Notes under the pieces: generated by a model
Databases searched by the model: none
What the model was told of the DNA's origin: nothing
The model's input: the letters and a program-made list of their open reading frames with translations, nothing else
Shown here: one piece after another, positions 3,676 through 63,015 of the stretch
Layout of the letters: every line of letters starts with the position of its first letter
How positions within the stretch are numbered: the first letter of the stretch is position 1
Assembly (NCBI RefSeq): GCF_028583425.1
Contig: NC_072801.1
Span: 20,418,001-20,482,000, forward strand
DNA length: 64,000 nt
DNA from: Eublepharis macularius
Taxonomy: Eukaryota > Chordata > Lepidosauria > Squamata > Eublepharidae
Reading direction: 5' to 3'
Position numbers and translations under genes: made by a program

Positions 3676-3885
3676 AACACACGAGAAGCTGCCTTACTAA
3701 ATCAGAGCATCGGTCCACCAAGGTCAATGTGGTCTACTCAGACTGGTAGCAGCACTCCAGGGTCTCAGGGGGAAGGAGGTCTTTCACATCACCTACAGCT
3801 TGGTTTTTTTTAACTGGGGATGCCAGGAATTGAACCTGGGAACTTCTGCATGCAAAGCAGAGGCTCTTCTACTGCGTTTCAGCTC
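3676..3885 (-). mobile_element. Sauria-type tRNA SINE
   Basis: Minus-strand head has GCATGCAGAAGTTCCCAGGT, then TTCAATTCCTGGCATCCCC, followed by the usual body (GACCCTGGAGTGCTGCTACC) and the tail toward 3680. It is nearly full length. Confidence 0.8.
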
Positions 3886-4739
3886 AAATATACAATATAA
3901 AAGACAGAAAAAGAGTTTTTTAAAAACCATAAAAATTATACTTTAGATTATACAGACCATAACGATTTATGGCTCAAAGGGGTCCAGTGCCCAAAGATAG
4001 ACCCATAAAGTAAGCTCGTGATACTGATTCACTCTGAAGGGAGGGGGCTTTCCAAAAGACAACGACCTGAGAAAACATAAGCAGAAAAACAGCCATTTTG
4101 ATGCATGGGTCCATCCAGGTTTGGAGAGATCTGGATTAAAACCCCAACTCTCCCAGATGCTTATTAAGATGATCTTGAGGCAGTCACCTCTCTCTGAGCT
4201 TAGCCTTCCTCACAGGGATGTTGTAAAGATAAAAGGAGTTGGGGCGGCTCCGTACGCCATTCCTGAGCTCCTCCAAGGAAAGGCAGAATAGTCTGTTAAT
4301 GAATAAGAGTTTGAATCCCCCCCAAGCAATTTTTGACTCAGCCCTCTCATCTTAGTGGAGGCAGTCTGGGAAGAGAGAGGGTTGGCTGGATAGGAAATAG
4401 GTCTCCCACCTTGCAAGCAAAACTATTACAGGGCTCCAAGCCGAACTAGCTCCCATGCTTCAGAGGTGACACTTTCCCACCCAGCGAGCTGATGGTAGCC
4501 GTCTCCTTGCCTGTCGGCTTTGCCCTGTGGGGGTGCAGAGAGCAGATACAGCCAGAATCTTTCACAGATGCTTTCTAATAAGGCAGCCCCGCAGCTGCAA
4601 CAGCGAAAGCAGCTCCTATCGGGAACACACAGAGGCAGCTCGGAGAATGGCAGCATCCTCAAAGCATCTCCCTGAACACCGTCCTTCTTTAGCATGAAAC
4701 ACCCGCCCGCTGTGGATAGGGCAGAGGAGAAGTTGAAGG
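3886..4739 (+). other. sequence upstream of the MCHR1-like gene
   Basis: This region should hold the 5' UTR and promoter of the receptor gene at 4740. I see no convincing TATA box and no CpG island. An in-frame TGA lies at 4734-4736, immediately before the proposed start codon. The long minus-strand frames here look accidental. Confidence 0.4.
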
Positions 4740-4824: not shown

Positions 4825-6044
4825 GTAAGTGCGCTCAACGGGGAGGCACAATTGAATGTAGAAAAAGATTGCCTATGGGCTCTGATTTCTCAGTGAGGGA
4901 GAGAATATATCAGCTATAAATGTATCTGCTATGTTTAAACAAGCTAGGGTAGTGTAGCGCACTCACTGCCTAAAGACTGTAGAGGTTCTGGGTGTAAACT
5001 CTTCCTCAGTCACCATGATGGCCCAGTGCCAGTAATCTCTCAGGCTAGCCTACCTTGCAGGGTTGCTAGGAGCTTTAGATGGAGGAAGGAAGAACCATGT
5101 ACAGAGCCCTGAATTCTTTTGCGGGGCAGGGGGATGACAACAATAGAATTGAAAGTGTGACAGGCAATTGCAAGGTGGAAAGAGATTCGAGCTCCTTTCT
5201 GCACCTTTCGTTATTCTGAGTAAAGAGCTCTCTTTCCTACATAGATTTCAGGATACCTTCTATTTCAGTTCCCTTTCCGTTTCAGATATAGCTCACAGCC
5301 GCTGGAGAATTTGTGTACAATAAGTTTGCTAAAAGTACCTGTGTGTGCATTAGATGTATAGCTTGCCCTCTGGAAATGGATCAGGGACAACAGTGGAGAG
5401 TGTACAACAATGTGTGCAACAATGTGTGTGTGTGTGCACAATGTTTTGCCTTGCTTCGTATATCTTGGTGTATTTCCCTATGCACATCAAAGCATTTATA
5501 CCATATGTGTGTGTCTGAAATGCATTTTTTAACATAAACCCTGTGCTATCTTCTTAGCAATGTCTCAGAGCGCCAAGGATGCAATTCGTGCTCCTTCTCT
5601 CCCCTAAGCAACTTGCACAAGTACAAGTGTCCCTGTTCCTCATTCTGGCCCCAAACCAAGAGCACGTTGATCAGGTTGACTCCTACTTGCTCTTCTCTCA
5701 AGCTCCAGGTGTACAGGCAGAAGTGCCCTCTATCCCAAGGGAGAAGGTATTAGCACTAACCTTAAGCTTGAAGGCTGCCAAAATGTTTGCCGAGGATAAT
5801 GCATCCTCAGAATGAAACGAGCTTGCCAGAGCTAGGACAGGTTGTGTGGGTTTTGCTGGGTAGTATTGTTATTGCGGACTGTATCTATTTTATGCAGAGT
5901 GCACTGCTGGCCTAGCAAGGTAGTTAAGGAATTGAGCGATGAGTCAGACCATGCTGGTTTTGGTAACCTTAGATTTGCTGACATTTCAGCACACTGATTG
6001 CAGATGTCATCAACCAAATCCTGTCTTTGTTCCCTCTTTGGCAG
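4825..6044 (+). other. intron of the MCHR1-like gene
   Basis: Starts GTAAGT and ends in a pyrimidine-rich tract CCTGTCTTTGTTCCCTCTTT followed by GGCAG. It contains a short GT-rich microsatellite near 5412-5436. Open frames inside it, including the in-frame extension that starts at 5939, are intron sequence and not receptor N-terminus. Confidence 0.8.
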
Positions 6045-7042
6045 GCGAACTTAGCCCGGTGACCTATTCTGTCTTCATCATGCCAGCCCTCTTTGGCATC
6101 ATTTGCCTGCTGGGCATCATTGGGAACAGCCTGGTGATCTGCACTGTTTTTAAAAAATCCAGCCCCAGCAGTAGCGTTCCCGACATCTTCATAATCAACC
6201 TGTCGATGGTGGACCTGCTCTTCCTCCTAGGCATGCCCTTTCTGATCCACCAGCTTTTGGGCAACGGAGCCTGGCAGTTTGGGGAGACTATGTGCACCAT
6301 CATTACTGCCCTGGATGCTAACAGCCAGTTCACCAGCACCTACATCTTAACCGCCATGTCCATTGACCGTTATCTGGCCACGGTGTACCCTTTCACTTCC
6401 ACCCGCTTCCGGAAGCCTGCCGCAGCTATCTTGACCATCTGTGTGCTCTGGGCTCTCTCCTTCCTCAGCATCACCCCCGTATGGATGTACGCACAGCTCA
6501 TTCCCTTGCCTGGCGGGATTCTGGGTTGTGGGATTCAGCTGCCGGATCCTCAGCGAGACATCTACTGGTACACACTCTACCAGTTCTTCCTGGCTTTTGC
6601 CATTCCTTTTGCTGTCATCACAGTGGCCTACAGGAGGATTCTGATCAGGATGGCCAGATCCTCACAAGCATTGACCGGGCAGAGATGCACAAGGCTCCGC
6701 ACCAAGAAGGTGACCCGCATCGCCATCGCCATCTGCTTGGCATTTTTTGTGTGCTGGGCCCCCTTCCACGTGCTGCAACTTGTGCAACTGGCCATGCACC
6801 AGCCCACCCTACCGTTTTACTATGCCTACAATGTAGCTATCAGCATGGGCTATGCCAACAGTTGCCTGAACCCTTTCATTTACATCTTGCTCGGACAGAA
6901 CTTCCGCAGGCGGATCGTGGTCTCTGTTCAGCCTGCGGGTTTGGGAGAGGACACCTCTCAGAACCGGCTCAAAAGCGCACGGGGAGAAGCCAGCGACTTT
7001 GGACAGCCTCTGCTGCACTTGGTCTCAGTATCAGCCAGATAG
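6045..7042 (+). CDS. MCHR1-like melanin-concentrating hormone receptor, exon 2 (seven-TM core)
   Basis: Together with exon 1 this gives a 360-residue class A GPCR, close to the 353 residues of human MCHR1, acting at the plasma membrane as receptor for melanin-concentrating hormone. Seen (spliced numbering): TM1 about 38-64 with GN at 55-56; NLSMVDLLFLLGMPF with D85 (2.50); conserved C112; D119 in ALDANSQF, the position that in MCHR1 binds the ligand arginine (family knowledge); DRY at 136-138; GCGIQLPD in loop 2 giving the disulfide partner; basic RLRTKKVTR before TM6; CWAPF in TM6; NPFIY in TM7. Family members differ most in the tail, and here the tail ends LLHLVSVSAR with no palmitoylation cysteine. 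The match is far closer to MCHR1 than to MCHR2. Because ANKS4B and CRYM are neighbours, it is probably not the orthologue of human MCHR1 but a paralog, so no symbol is given. No frameshift or missing core motif: it looks functional. Confidence 0.95.
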
Positions 7043-8190: not shown

Positions 8191-8574
8191 AAGGATGATA
8201 AAAACACGTGAACTATGAATTAGTAACTTAATGCAGAACAGTCTTGTTGGAATTTTAAGTCTGGTTTGAAGCCATTTGACACATACCTTTTTCTACCTAG
8301 AGAAAAATTCTTCCTCGCTGAATATAAAAGTTTTGAGATGGGGCTCTTTTTATTTCTCTGCACGTCTGAAATTTCAGTTACATTTGAAGAAAGAAAAACA
8401 ACGGATTCTCATATGGGAAATTACCAGAGCAATGATTCTGGGATAACATTCCAGCAGGGTATGATAGTTTCAGATGGGCAGCAATATAAGTCCAGTGGCA
8501 CCGTGAAAGAATTTATTCCAGCAGAAGATTTTGTGAGTCAGAGCTCACTTCATCAGATCACATATAGAGTTGCC

Positions 8575-8954
8575 CAGGGCATTTCCCCCCAGAAAAGAGG
8601 TGGTGGAACTCAGTGGGTTGCCAGCACAGGGGGCAACTCTTGGCGGGAGGTGGTGCCCCTGGTACCACTTATGTCCATGCAAAGTGCGCACACATTCCCA
8701 GGACCAATGACGTCACTTTGGGCCAGCTGGAACAAGGGGGTAGTTTTTAAAAGTTTAAATCGCCCTTGGCAAAAATGGTCACATGGCTGGTGGCCCAGCC
8801 CCCTGATCTCCAGACAGAGGGGAGTTTAGATTGGAGTGGCGCGGACGACAATCAAAACTCCCCTCTGTCTGGAGATCAGGGCGCAGGCCATGTGCCCATT
8901 TTCAAGGGGTTCCGGAACTCCGTTTCACCGCGTTCCAGCTGAAAAAAAGCCCTG
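8575..8954. mobile_element. hAT-like MITE, CAGGGC family, long hairpin core
   Basis: Begins CAGGGCATTTCC and ends GAAAAAAAGCCCTG with 8-bp duplications GAGTTGCC (8567-8574 and 8955-8962). Inside, CTCCAGACAGAGGGGAGTTT and its inverse AAACTCCCCTCTGTCTGGAG form a long hairpin. The duplicated target is part of an older TAGGGTTGCC-type element, so this is a nested insertion. Confidence 0.9.
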
Positions 8955-29771: not shown

Positions 29772-30113
29772 GAGGCTGCCTTACATTGAATAAAATCCTT
29801 GGATTATGGTGGTCAGTATTGTCTACTCAGACTGGCAGCAGCTGGAGATCCTTCACATCACCTACTATGGCCATTTTCACACTGCTTACCGGTCATGGAA
29901 CATCGCGCCGAGCTCCTGGAATGACAGCATCTTCCTGGCACGATTTCGTGCGAGAACGACAGGAAGACTGTCATTCCGGGAGCTCGGCGTGATGTTCTGT
30001 GGCCGGTAAGCAGTGTGAGAACAGCCTATCTGATCCTTTCAGATGGAGATGCTGGGGATTGAATCCGGAACCTCCTGCGCGCCAAGCAGATACTCTACCC
30101 ACTAAGCCACGTT
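29772..30113 (-). mobile_element. Sauria-type tRNA SINE split by a palindromic element
   Basis: The SINE body (GGTCAGTATTGTCTACTCAG, CAGACTGGCAGCAGCTGGAG, CTTCACATCACCTACTA) breaks at 29868 and resumes at 30027 with TATCTGATCCTTTCAGATGG and the head with GGGGATTGAATCCGGAACCT. The insert is 29869-30026. Confidence 0.85.
29869..30026. mobile_element. palindromic DNA element, GGCCATTTTCACAC ends
   Basis: Ends GGCCATTTTCACACTGCTTA and TAAGCAGTGTGAGAACAGCC, 3-bp duplication TAT (29866-29868 and 30027-30029). The arms mirror each other through CATCGCGCCGAGCTCC and AGTCTTCCTG-type pairs. The empty SINE site can be rebuilt from other SINE copies (…CACCTACT…TGATCCTTT), confirming the 3-bp duplication. 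Confidence 0.88.
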
Positions 30114-30349
30114 CCCTCCACATCGTTAACAGTCCCTCTTCTAGCTCTATGTCATTGTTCTATTTCTCCAAGATTGCTTATGTATTATTGTGAGCTGGTT
30201 AGAGAAAACGTGAGCTGGAGAAAAAATAGGTTAACAATATTTAATAAAATTAGAAATGTCAGAATGTCCCGTTGGCCTATATGCACTCTCAGTTATTGTG
30301 ACGTAGAGCAGTTTGGATGGACAGTGATAGTTTAGTAATTAGACCTTTC

Positions 30350-36891: not shown

Positions 36892-36899
36892 ACCCAGAT

Positions 36900-37350
36900 T
36901 AGGCTTGCCAGTCTCCAGGTGATCAATACTACAAACAGTCCTATGTCATAAACAGTATCACTCTTAAGGGCTTCCCTTAAGAGTGATACTGTTTATGACA
37001 TAGGACTGTTTGTAGTATTGATTGTATAATTTACTCTGATAGACTTGTTCTAAATACACCTTTTGATATTTTCCTAGTTAGTCGGTCACGGCTTATGTTC
37101 TTTCGTTTCTATCACGTGGCTCTCTCTTTGGGGCTTATCTTAGTCTCCAGGTGATAGCTGGAGATCTTCCGGAATTACAACTGATCTCCAGGCAATAAAG
37201 ATCAGTTCCCCTGGAGAAAATGGCTGCTTTGAAGGGTGAACTCTATAGAATTATACCTCTCTGAGGCCCTTCCCCTCACCAAACCCCATCCTCTTCAGGC
37301 TCTGCCCCCCAAATCTCCAGGAATTTTCCAACCTGAACCTGGCAACCCTA
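36900..37350 (+). mobile_element. TAGGGTTGCC-family hAT-like MITE carrying a retro-insert
   Basis: Duplication ACCCAGAT (36892-36899 and 37351-37358) surrounds TAGGCTTGCCAGTCTCCAGG and CCTGGCAACCCTA. The family sequence breaks after AGTCTCCAGGTGAT and resumes with a second copy of the same 14 bases at 37142. Confidence 0.9.
36924..37141 (-). mobile_element. retro-insert with a perfect 47-bp snap-back hairpin
   Basis: Target duplication AGTCTCCAGGTGAT (14 bp, 36910-36923 and 37142-37155). Positions 36924-36970 and 36974-37020 are exact inverse complements, separated by CTT; pairing runs two bases into the target. The rest (37021-37141) is single-copy in this window: GATAAGCCCCAAAGAGAGAG on the minus strand. 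No poly(A) and no recognised family. The duplication length points to LINE machinery; the hairpin suggests the cDNA folded back and was copied on itself. Confidence 0.8.
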
Positions 37351-37399
37351 ACCCAGATGTGTGTGTCTTTTGACTACAGATTCATTTCTTACATCTAAC

Positions 37400-44670: not shown

Positions 44671-45002
44671 TCATGTTCCAGTATTTTTCCATCTCCAGCC
44701 AGAGTTGGGAACTGTTCTGCTTAGCCAGGCAGCACATCCGGTGCGTGAAGCACATGAGGGGAAAGGCTTATGGTATGTCCATATTCATAAGCTGTTCTTT
44801 CACTGTGAGGGAGGCGATGACTGCTAACGATAGGGGTTACACTCTCATGGTCAAAAAGGTTAGGGACCCATGTTGTAGAGGAACCTGGATCTTAAGTTTC
44901 ATGCTACAGCAACTTTGCTGACCTTAAGCCCCCTTCCACGCTAGAAGAATGGCATTCTAGGTTTCTTACTCTCTTGCTATCTCATGTGTTGTGTTTTCTC
45001 AG

Positions 45003-46071
45003 GGGGGATCCAGACAAATGCGACATTTGGGGCAATACCCCTCTCCACCACGCAGCCTCTAATGGTCACATCCATTGTGTTTCCTTCTTAATCAACTTTG
45101 GTGCCAATATCTTCTCCCTTGATAACAACATGCGCTCTGCTCTGGATGCAGCGGCCAACAGGAACCAGTACGAATGTGTCCAAATCCTTGACAATGCTGC
45201 TACTGAGCAGGGCATCAAAAACCCCAAAAGAGTCTCCCGTCTGAAGGCCCATGCACAGCGTGACGTTCAGAGGCAGATTCGAGAATGTGAACGACGCCAA
45301 GAGAGGCATGAGCATGAAATGATCAGACATTACAACAAGACGCATGCCGAAAGAGAAACGCCCACCCGGACACGTGTGTCGAATTTTTTTACCACCCGCT
45401 CACTAGGGGCCCTACCCAAACATTTGAAGGACACCTTCAGGCTAAAGACAAAAAAGAAAGAGGAGGATTCAGAAGACCTGGACACAGGGAGCAATAACCA
45501 AGCAAAGGACATTCCAGTTGGCCGAACCACTGTGATGGACATGTTCAGTGAAAACGAGGAGGAAGAACCAGAAAACCTGGGCAAAACCAGCGTTTCTGAA
45601 GATGGTCAGGTAGAACAAGAGTCCATTTTTAACCGTCCAGGTCTTGGTAACATTGTTTTCCGAAACAACTTGGCCACTGGCATAACCGCTGCTCCTGTGT
45701 TGCCTGAGAAAGAAGAGATCAGTTTCCAAATACCGGATGAATTGTTTCAATTCAAAAGGTCGGAGGTGGCCAGTGACCCAGATTTGGAGAATGTTCCTGA
45801 GGAATCTTGGATCGAGGAAGAAATTGGGTGGGATGATGGCAGCACAGAGACCACCCCCCTCGAAGTCTTTCTTGCATCACTGGAGCTGAATGAATTCCTT
45901 CCTATCTTGATGAGAGAAGATACCGATTTAGAGACTCTCATGCTGTGCTCTGATGAAGACCTCCAGAGCATACAGATGCAGCTGGGTCCAAGGAAAAAGA
46001 TCCTCCATGCAGTAAACAGAAGGAAGGAAGCACTGGCAAAGCCAGGCAAGGCAGAAGACACCAAGCTGTAA
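45003..46071 (+). CDS. ANKS4B: ANKS4B exon 2 (ankyrin repeats, central region, SAM, PDZ ligand)
   Basis: With exon 1 the protein has 410 residues (human about 417). ANKS4B (Harp) is a cytoplasmic scaffold that binds harmonin/USH1C and myosin-7B in the intermicrovillar adhesion complex of enterocyte and kidney brush borders (family knowledge). Seen: ankyrin repeats through about residue 130 (GNTPLHHAASNGHIHCVSFL, then NFGANIFSLDNN); a basic coiled stretch with QRDVQRQIRECERRQERHEH; RPGLGNIVFRNN; an acidic middle; SAM domain about 339-399 (TPLEVFLASLELNEFLPIL … LGPRKKILHAVNRR); and the terminus EDTKL, a class I PDZ ligand. The closest alternative, USH1G (SANS), is longer and differs at the start. 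No disruption. Confidence 0.97.

Positions 46072-52273: not shown

Positions 52274-63015
<10,742 letters not shown>

What the first reader, a model, noticed from the sequence alone, without database searches (positions are those of the whole stretch)
36910..37155. Retro-insert with a perfect 47-bp snap-back hairpin and 14-bp target duplication inside a MITE
Positions 36924-36970 and 36974-37020 are exact inverse complements with a 3-base spacer. The unit sits between two copies of AGTCTCCAGGTGAT and splits a TAGGGTTGCC element that has its own 8-bp duplication. Ordinary twin priming gives an inversion, not a perfect palindrome. This looks like a cDNA 3' end that folded and primed on itself during integration. 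The source RNA is not recognised.
Basis: partly seen in the sequence, partly recalled or inferred. Interest (0 to 1): 0.8.

Follow-up and report, generated by a model that had tools for sequence, protein, structure and literature searches.

The report
Penelope retroelement copy ending in hairpin
A short piece of a Penelope-like retrotransposon was copied into an older mobile element with part of itself mirrored into a perfect hairpin, and its relatives in the same genome often hit the same 14-base site of that element, which suggests that this Penelope family chooses its landing sites by sequence.

Summary
In detail: arms 36924-36970/36974-37020 are exact inverse complements (49 bp with two bases shared with the target), between 14-bp duplications, inside a hAT-like MITE with its own 8-bp duplication. 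The source is identified: 36968-37141 is the 3' end of a low-copy Penelope-like retroelement (RT and GIY-YIG stretches) with 39 insertions counted in the same genome. Relatives carry GGGCTTCCC or close variants where the hairpin turns. Mirrored, head-to-head ends occur in 14 of 39 insertions, a structure already in print for Penelope elements. In 12 of those 14 the mirrored arm starts in one narrow zone; here it starts elsewhere, at a 2-bp match to the target, so cDNA snap-back is favoured over two-strand priming, not proven. The unexpected result is the target: 17 of 39 insertions lie at one site near the MITE end, and 12 of 16 two-ended targets fit GCY-N13..15-RGC (10 of them N14, the duplicated bases). 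The papers I searched showed no such target for Penelope elements; the two endonucleases described there prefer AT-rich DNA.

The parts
36892..36899 (.). 8-bp target duplication ACCCAGAT of the host MITE, left
37351..37358 (.). 8-bp target duplication ACCCAGAT of the host MITE, right
36900..37350 (+). hAT-like MITE (TAGGSTTGCC ends), split by the insert; hAT is inferred from the 8-bp duplication
   Evidence: 10 intervals of this family in the window; 9 other copies run through the insertion point
36907..36909 (+). left half GCC of the target motif GCC-N14-AGC
36910..36923 (+). 14-bp target duplication, left copy; its last AT also pairs with 37021-37022
36924..36967 (-). mirrored arm: antisense copy of Penelope-like sequence (with 36922-36923 and 36968-36970 it forms the 49-bp left arm)
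   Evidence: relatives diverge from it upstream of unit position 1
36968..36976 (+). GGGCTTCCC, turn of the hairpin, present or nearly so in relatives
36968..37141 (+). 3'-terminal segment of a Penelope-like element (unit 1-174), ending at the tail end point
   Evidence: 42 matches in the own genome; best relative 91% identical
37142..37155 (+). 14-bp target duplication, right copy
37156..37158 (+). right half AGC of the target motif

Best explanation
The insert is a 5'-truncated copy of the 3' end of a Penelope-like retroelement (PLE). Its endonuclease cut a hAT-like MITE at GCC^N14^AGC, which later gave the 14-bp duplication. The bottom-strand end primed reverse transcription at the element's tail start point (unit 174), and synthesis stopped at unit 1, after copying GGGCTTCCC. 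The cDNA end GGGAAGCCC folded back (CCC on GGG, 3-base loop), copied itself for about 46 more bases and was joined to the top-strand target end through a 2-base AT match, leaving a perfect palindrome. Shown: source, multi-copy family, GGGCTTCCC in relatives, duplication, empty site, target motif. Inferred: the cutting, the priming, the fold-back and the order of steps.
For: Source repeat in the own genome. RT stretch (RVT_1, E 1.5e-11) and GIY-YIG stretch upstream of the matching 3' part in one copy. Two end classes, unit about 131-147 and 162-175, like the PLE tail (PMC11167929). Relatives read GGGCTTCCC, GGGCTTCCT or GGGCTCCCT at the turn. The mirrored arm here starts at unit 55 beside a 2-bp AT match, not in the zone used by 12 of 14 mirrored copies. 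Snap-back by other retroelement RTs is documented (PMC11371274, passages), and self-priming was proposed for PLEs (PMC3846280, passages).
Against: GIY-YIG score is below Pfam's cut-off (19.4 against 22.6 bits). Three-base GGG:CCC pairing would serve end-joining of two cDNAs equally. Near-palindromic centres also occur without a natural self-complementary turn (L043, L006), so the centre is weak evidence. No other mirrored copy here clearly needs snap-back. No hammerhead core was found.
Confidence: 0.6

Rival explanations
1. Two-strand (twin) priming. Both target ends primed cDNAs on the PLE RNA, both stopped near unit 1-9, and the two cDNA ends were joined through GGG/CCC; the top-strand cDNA started aberrantly at unit 55 via the AT match.
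For: The anole PLE protein cuts and extends both strands in vitro (PMC11167929). In 12 of 14 mirrored copies the antisense arm starts in one narrow zone, and in L008, L045, L054 and L080 it reaches further 5' than the sense arm, which self-copying cannot give.
Against: The start at unit 55 is unlike those 12 copies; in vitro starts are described as not homologous to the cut DNA.
Confidence: 0.28
2. A canonical mirrored copy (arm from about unit 137) later lost about 82 bp of its arm by a microhomology-mediated deletion beginning at the target duplication.
For: Long palindromes are deletion-prone (general knowledge); AT microhomology is available; L043 has a short arm and no duplication was found there with the three words tried.
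Against: The breakpoint would have to fall exactly at the edge of an intact 14-bp duplication.
Confidence: 0.09
3. The palindrome is an assembly or sequencing artefact.
For: No reads could be examined.
Against: It is confined between exact target duplications, and 14 of 39 insertions of the family have mirrored ends of varied geometry.
Confidence: 0.03

Closest known systems
Endonuclease-containing Penelope elements of the rotifer Adineta vaga (PMC3846280, passages read)
   Same: Inverted 5' terminal repeats in head-to-head order, palindromes at the inverted junction, short target duplications, an optional tail of about 31 bp on one end; self-priming proposed there
   Different: Duplications of 8-10 bp there, 13-16 bp in most copies measured here; the passages read give no sequence-specific target
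PAc, Poseidon of Anolis carolinensis (PMC11167929, parts 1-2 of 4 read)
   Same: RT plus GIY-YIG, two internal RT start sites that explain the tail, cuts and extends both strands
   Different: Cuts AT-rich DNA (ATT), carries a hammerhead ribozyme, no difference in start site between strands; here the target is GC-anchored and palindromic, no hammerhead was found, and the two ends differ in start zone
Twin-primed 5' inversions of human LINE-1 (PMC12016303, passages read)
   Same: Inverted 5' part, target duplication, overlapping cDNAs in some insertions
   Different: Overlaps there have median 12 bp (quartiles 4-17); here the mirrored arm is wholly contained in the sense part (about 47-49 bp), and there is no poly(A) tail
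Snap-back 5' junctions of R2 proteins (PRINT, PMC11371274, passages read)
   Same: The cDNA 3' end primes further synthesis on itself before the 5' junction forms
   Different: Engineered R2 proteins at human rDNA, not a natural PLE insertion

Membership tests
Penelope-like element (endonuclease-containing) | Reverse transcriptase domain in the source element | tested here: met
   RVT_1 E 1.5e-11 on a 311-aa stretch of L009; relatives in Anolis and Xenopus. That the RT is of the telomerase-like Penelope type is recalled from motifs, not tested by a tree
Penelope-like element (endonuclease-containing) | GIY-YIG endonuclease domain downstream of RT in the same element | tested here: inconclusive
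   PF01541 E 0.0014, 19.4 bits, below the 22.6-bit cut-off; RT and GIY-YIG stretches lie in one locus, separated by what looks like a nested insert
Penelope-like element (endonuclease-containing) | Two 3' end classes about 30-40 bp apart (tail) | tested here: met
   Ends at unit about 131-147 and 162-175
Penelope-like element (endonuclease-containing) | Head-to-head inverted terminal repeats | tested here: met
   14 of 39 insertions
Penelope-like element (endonuclease-containing) | Hammerhead ribozyme motif (reported in PAc and other PLEs) | tested here: not met
   No Rfam hammerhead at E up to 1 in L002-L008; no core pattern (recalled) in 7 of 7 loci scanned. Not held to be essential for insertion in vitro (PMC11167929)
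Sequence-specific retroelement | Recurrent insertion at one sequence beyond chance | tested here: met
   17 of 39 at one MITE site, P about 2e-15; 7 of 8 two-ended sites outside the MITE fit GCY-N13..15-RGC
Sequence-specific retroelement | The element's endonuclease makes the cut | not testable with these tools
   Needs protein and DNA in vitro
LINE-1-type retro-insert | Poly(A) tail and TT/AAAA-like nick | tested here: not met
   3' end is ...GGGGCTTATCTT and the nick context is GCC/AGTC

The most novel reading that the evidence does not exclude
This PLE family has a sequence-specific, symmetric target. A dimer of its GIY-YIG endonuclease cuts N^RGC on both strands of GCC-N14-GGC, leaving 14-nt 3' overhangs. 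Both ends then prime reverse transcription at two different fixed RNA positions (no-tail and tail), which yields the family's head-to-head copies. An abundant hAT-like MITE supplies the perfect site near its end and acts as a safe harbour. Snap-back is a minor side route, seen in this window.
Probability: 0.6. Interest if true: 0.65.

Novelty: new variant of a known kind. Interest (0 to 1): 0.5.

Why it matters
The mirrored end is an instance of a structure already reported for Penelope elements. The family behind it adds two testable things: a compact palindromic target with a natural hot spot, in a class whose two endonucleases described in the paper read prefer AT-rich DNA (PMC11167929); and geometry (either arm can be the longer one, with different start zones on the two sides) that points to priming on both strands as the usual origin of head-to-head copies, a step of the Penelope cycle that PMC3846280 leaves open.

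Tried and rejected
Rfam: no family reached its gathering score in the insert. The permissive scan listed mainly miRNA models, far below their cut-offs, as a perfect hairpin would. Exact scans of viral contigs with three stretches of the insert: 0 matches in 3 scans. tRNA: none in the insert. Mitochondrial, snRNA, LTR strong-stop and RNA-virus origins were considered from recall and dropped once the Penelope source was found. An open frame MFFRFYHVALSLGL at about 37096 is not an ORF start in L002, where a stop follows, and is not claimed. The L003 duplication suggested looks spurious in context and is not counted.

Bias: the first genome search used a query that contained MITE flanks, so target counts rest on the insert-only searches. 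Two weak MITE matches (L020 and L042, 12 and 15 bp, E 0.049) were judged noise and not counted as MITE. The RGC distance range (9-17) and the motif were chosen after seeing the first flanks. Truly out of sample are only L076 and L080: 2 of 2 lie at the MITE site (L076 read on one flank, L080 on both).

Full report
OBSERVATION. Arms 36924-36970 and 36974-37020 are exact inverse complements with spacer CTT. Two further bases pair outward, so the arms are 49 bp and AT is shared between target end and insert. The only other perfect inverted repeat of 15 bp or more (spacer up to 10) in the window has 16-bp arms. AGTCTCCAGGTGAT flanks the 218-bp insert. The host MITE has its own 8-bp duplication ACCCAGAT, and 9 other MITE copies in the window run through the site without an insert.

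SOURCE. A 400-base query in the window's own genome (2.24 Gb, 72 contigs) found a repeat matching window 36968-37141. The insert-only search gave 42 matches from 48 candidates, 40 scored; a query from another copy gave 41 matches from 54 candidates, 40 scored, with two new insertions, L076 and L080. I count 39 distinct insertions, mirrored pairs counted once: 37 from the 38 loci (L015 and L050 are two ends of one element) and the two new ones. This is a lower bound.

One copy (L004, read further upstream as L009) has a reverse transcriptase stretch of 311 aa (RVT_1, E 1.5e-11) and, after what looks like a nested insert, a GIY-YIG stretch (E 0.0014, 19.4 bits, below Pfam's cut-off of 22.6; positions). 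RT relatives include Anolis carolinensis and Xenopus proteins (1038 hits, 120 listed). RT plus GIY-YIG is what PMC11167929 (parts 1-2 of 4 read) gives for canonical Penelope-like elements. The clade was not resolved, and no hammerhead was found.

ENDS. In unit coordinates (1 = 36968, 174 = 37141; for relatives taken from the best-matching copy, so approximate) the 3' ends fall at about 131-147 or 162-175. The gap resembles the 30-40 bp PLE tail, which PMC11167929 explains by two internal RT start sites.

MIRRORED COPIES. 14 of 39 insertions have head-to-head ends: L001 (window), L002, L006, L008, L012, L013, L015/L050, L018, L038, L043, L045, L046, L054, L080. Most others were read only over about 0.5-1.5 kb on a side, so 14 is a lower bound. 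In 12 of 14 the antisense arm starts at about 131-147 (a few bases less where duplicated bases overlap the arm) while the sense arm ends at the tail (162-174). The exceptions are the window copy (55) and L043 (about 36; no duplication found with three words tried). In L008, L045, L054 and L080 the antisense arm reaches further 5' than the sense arm; a self-copied arm cannot outreach its template, and the reverse order fails too because the tail lies outside the antisense arm. These copies point to priming on both target strands. Against a simple match to the anole enzyme, PMC11167929 reports no difference in start site between strands in vitro.

THIS COPY. Relatives read ACCGGGGCTTCCC, ACCGAGGCTTCCC or close variants at the turn, while the window reads TTAAGGGCTTCCCTTAA. 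A cDNA ending in GGGAAGCCC could fold with a 3-bp stem and 3-base loop and prime on itself. Its mirrored arm starts outside the usual zone, at an AT match to the target. I put snap-back at about 0.6 and aberrant two-strand priming at about 0.3. The same GGG:CCC pairing would serve both, and L043 and L006 have near-palindromic centres without such a turn, so the centre alone cannot decide.

TARGET. 15 of 37 insertions and both new ones, 17 of 39, lie at one site within about the first 28 bp of the MITE; L007 is in a degenerate copy and L055 rests on a 14-bp match. L001, L002, L003, L006, L007, L008 and L045 have the window's orientation, L015/L050, L019, L044, L051 and L080 the opposite; for L037, L053, L055, L056 and L076 only a no-tail end was read, so orientation is open. 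MITE covers 3.4% of the window and 2.3% of 65.4 kb of loci away from the insertions: P about 2e-15. Among the 15 elements, right flanks 330-1000 bases out share no similarity over 200 nt, so they are not one duplicated locus.

Empty sites show what targets share. GCY-N14-RGC is met in L001, L002, L008, L012, L013, L018, L046 and L054 and, read by eye, in L011 and L080; spacing is N15 in L038 and N13 in L045. One half is off in L006 and L007 (GCC-N14-GCC) and in L020 and L015/L050 (GAC-N14-GGC), read by eye. That is 12 of 16 two-ended sites with both halves. In the window copy N14 is exactly the duplication. Of the 8 two-ended sites outside the MITE, 7 fit (not L020). In 16 single-ended, non-MITE insertions RGC lies 9-17 bases past the end in 13, against 22.7% expected (P 1e-6; range chosen after seeing flanks; misses L011, L016, L058). 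L011 is in both sets.

LITERATURE. Six searches of the held open-access library and the passages read gave no palindromic GC-anchored target or MITE hot spot for Penelope-like elements. Most subscription papers are not held, and PMC8557442 was not available. Passages only were read of PMC3846280, PMC12016303, PMC11371274, PMC4640811, PMC8869645 and PMC12910113; other papers were seen as listings.

VERDICT. The insert is a Penelope-like 3' fragment with a mirrored end, a known structure of the class, probably reached here by a rarer route. The family's target specificity is the part worth following.

Noticed in passing
5936-7042 (+), 44896-46071 (+), about 59331-59657 (-): Open frames that look like a melanin-concentrating hormone receptor, ANKS4B and mu-crystallin (names recalled from the translations, not searched), suggesting a vertebrate genome, probably a reptile.
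   Followed up: no
30044-30116 (-): tRNA-Ala (GGC) by ARAGORN and Rfam; two weaker Rfam tRNA matches at 3815-3886 and 55992-56061 lie just above the cut-off.
   Followed up: no
L020 and L042, 3' flanks: Two insertions share a similar flank of another, non-MITE repeat (AACTTGAGTAATGGCTG / AACTTGGGTGATGGCTG) at about the same point: a possible second hot spot.
   Followed up: no
L011 and L020, about 340 bases upstream of the unit: Both copies begin at nearly the same 5' point (TGTGAGCGAGCCRTCATT), and L002 and L008 reach about the same distance, suggesting a defined RNA 5' end and short units of about 510 nt.
   Followed up: partly
L043:1340-1510: A second hairpin copy (turn CTGCCCTA-GAGT-TAGGGCAG) with a short antisense arm and no duplication found: a comparison case for the window copy.
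   Followed up: partly
L009, sense 2061-2361 and 8338-8884: The peptide VEDLPGCQGRPLVALRK occurs on both sides of about 6 kb between the RT and GIY-YIG stretches, as if a nested insert brought a long duplication.
   Followed up: no
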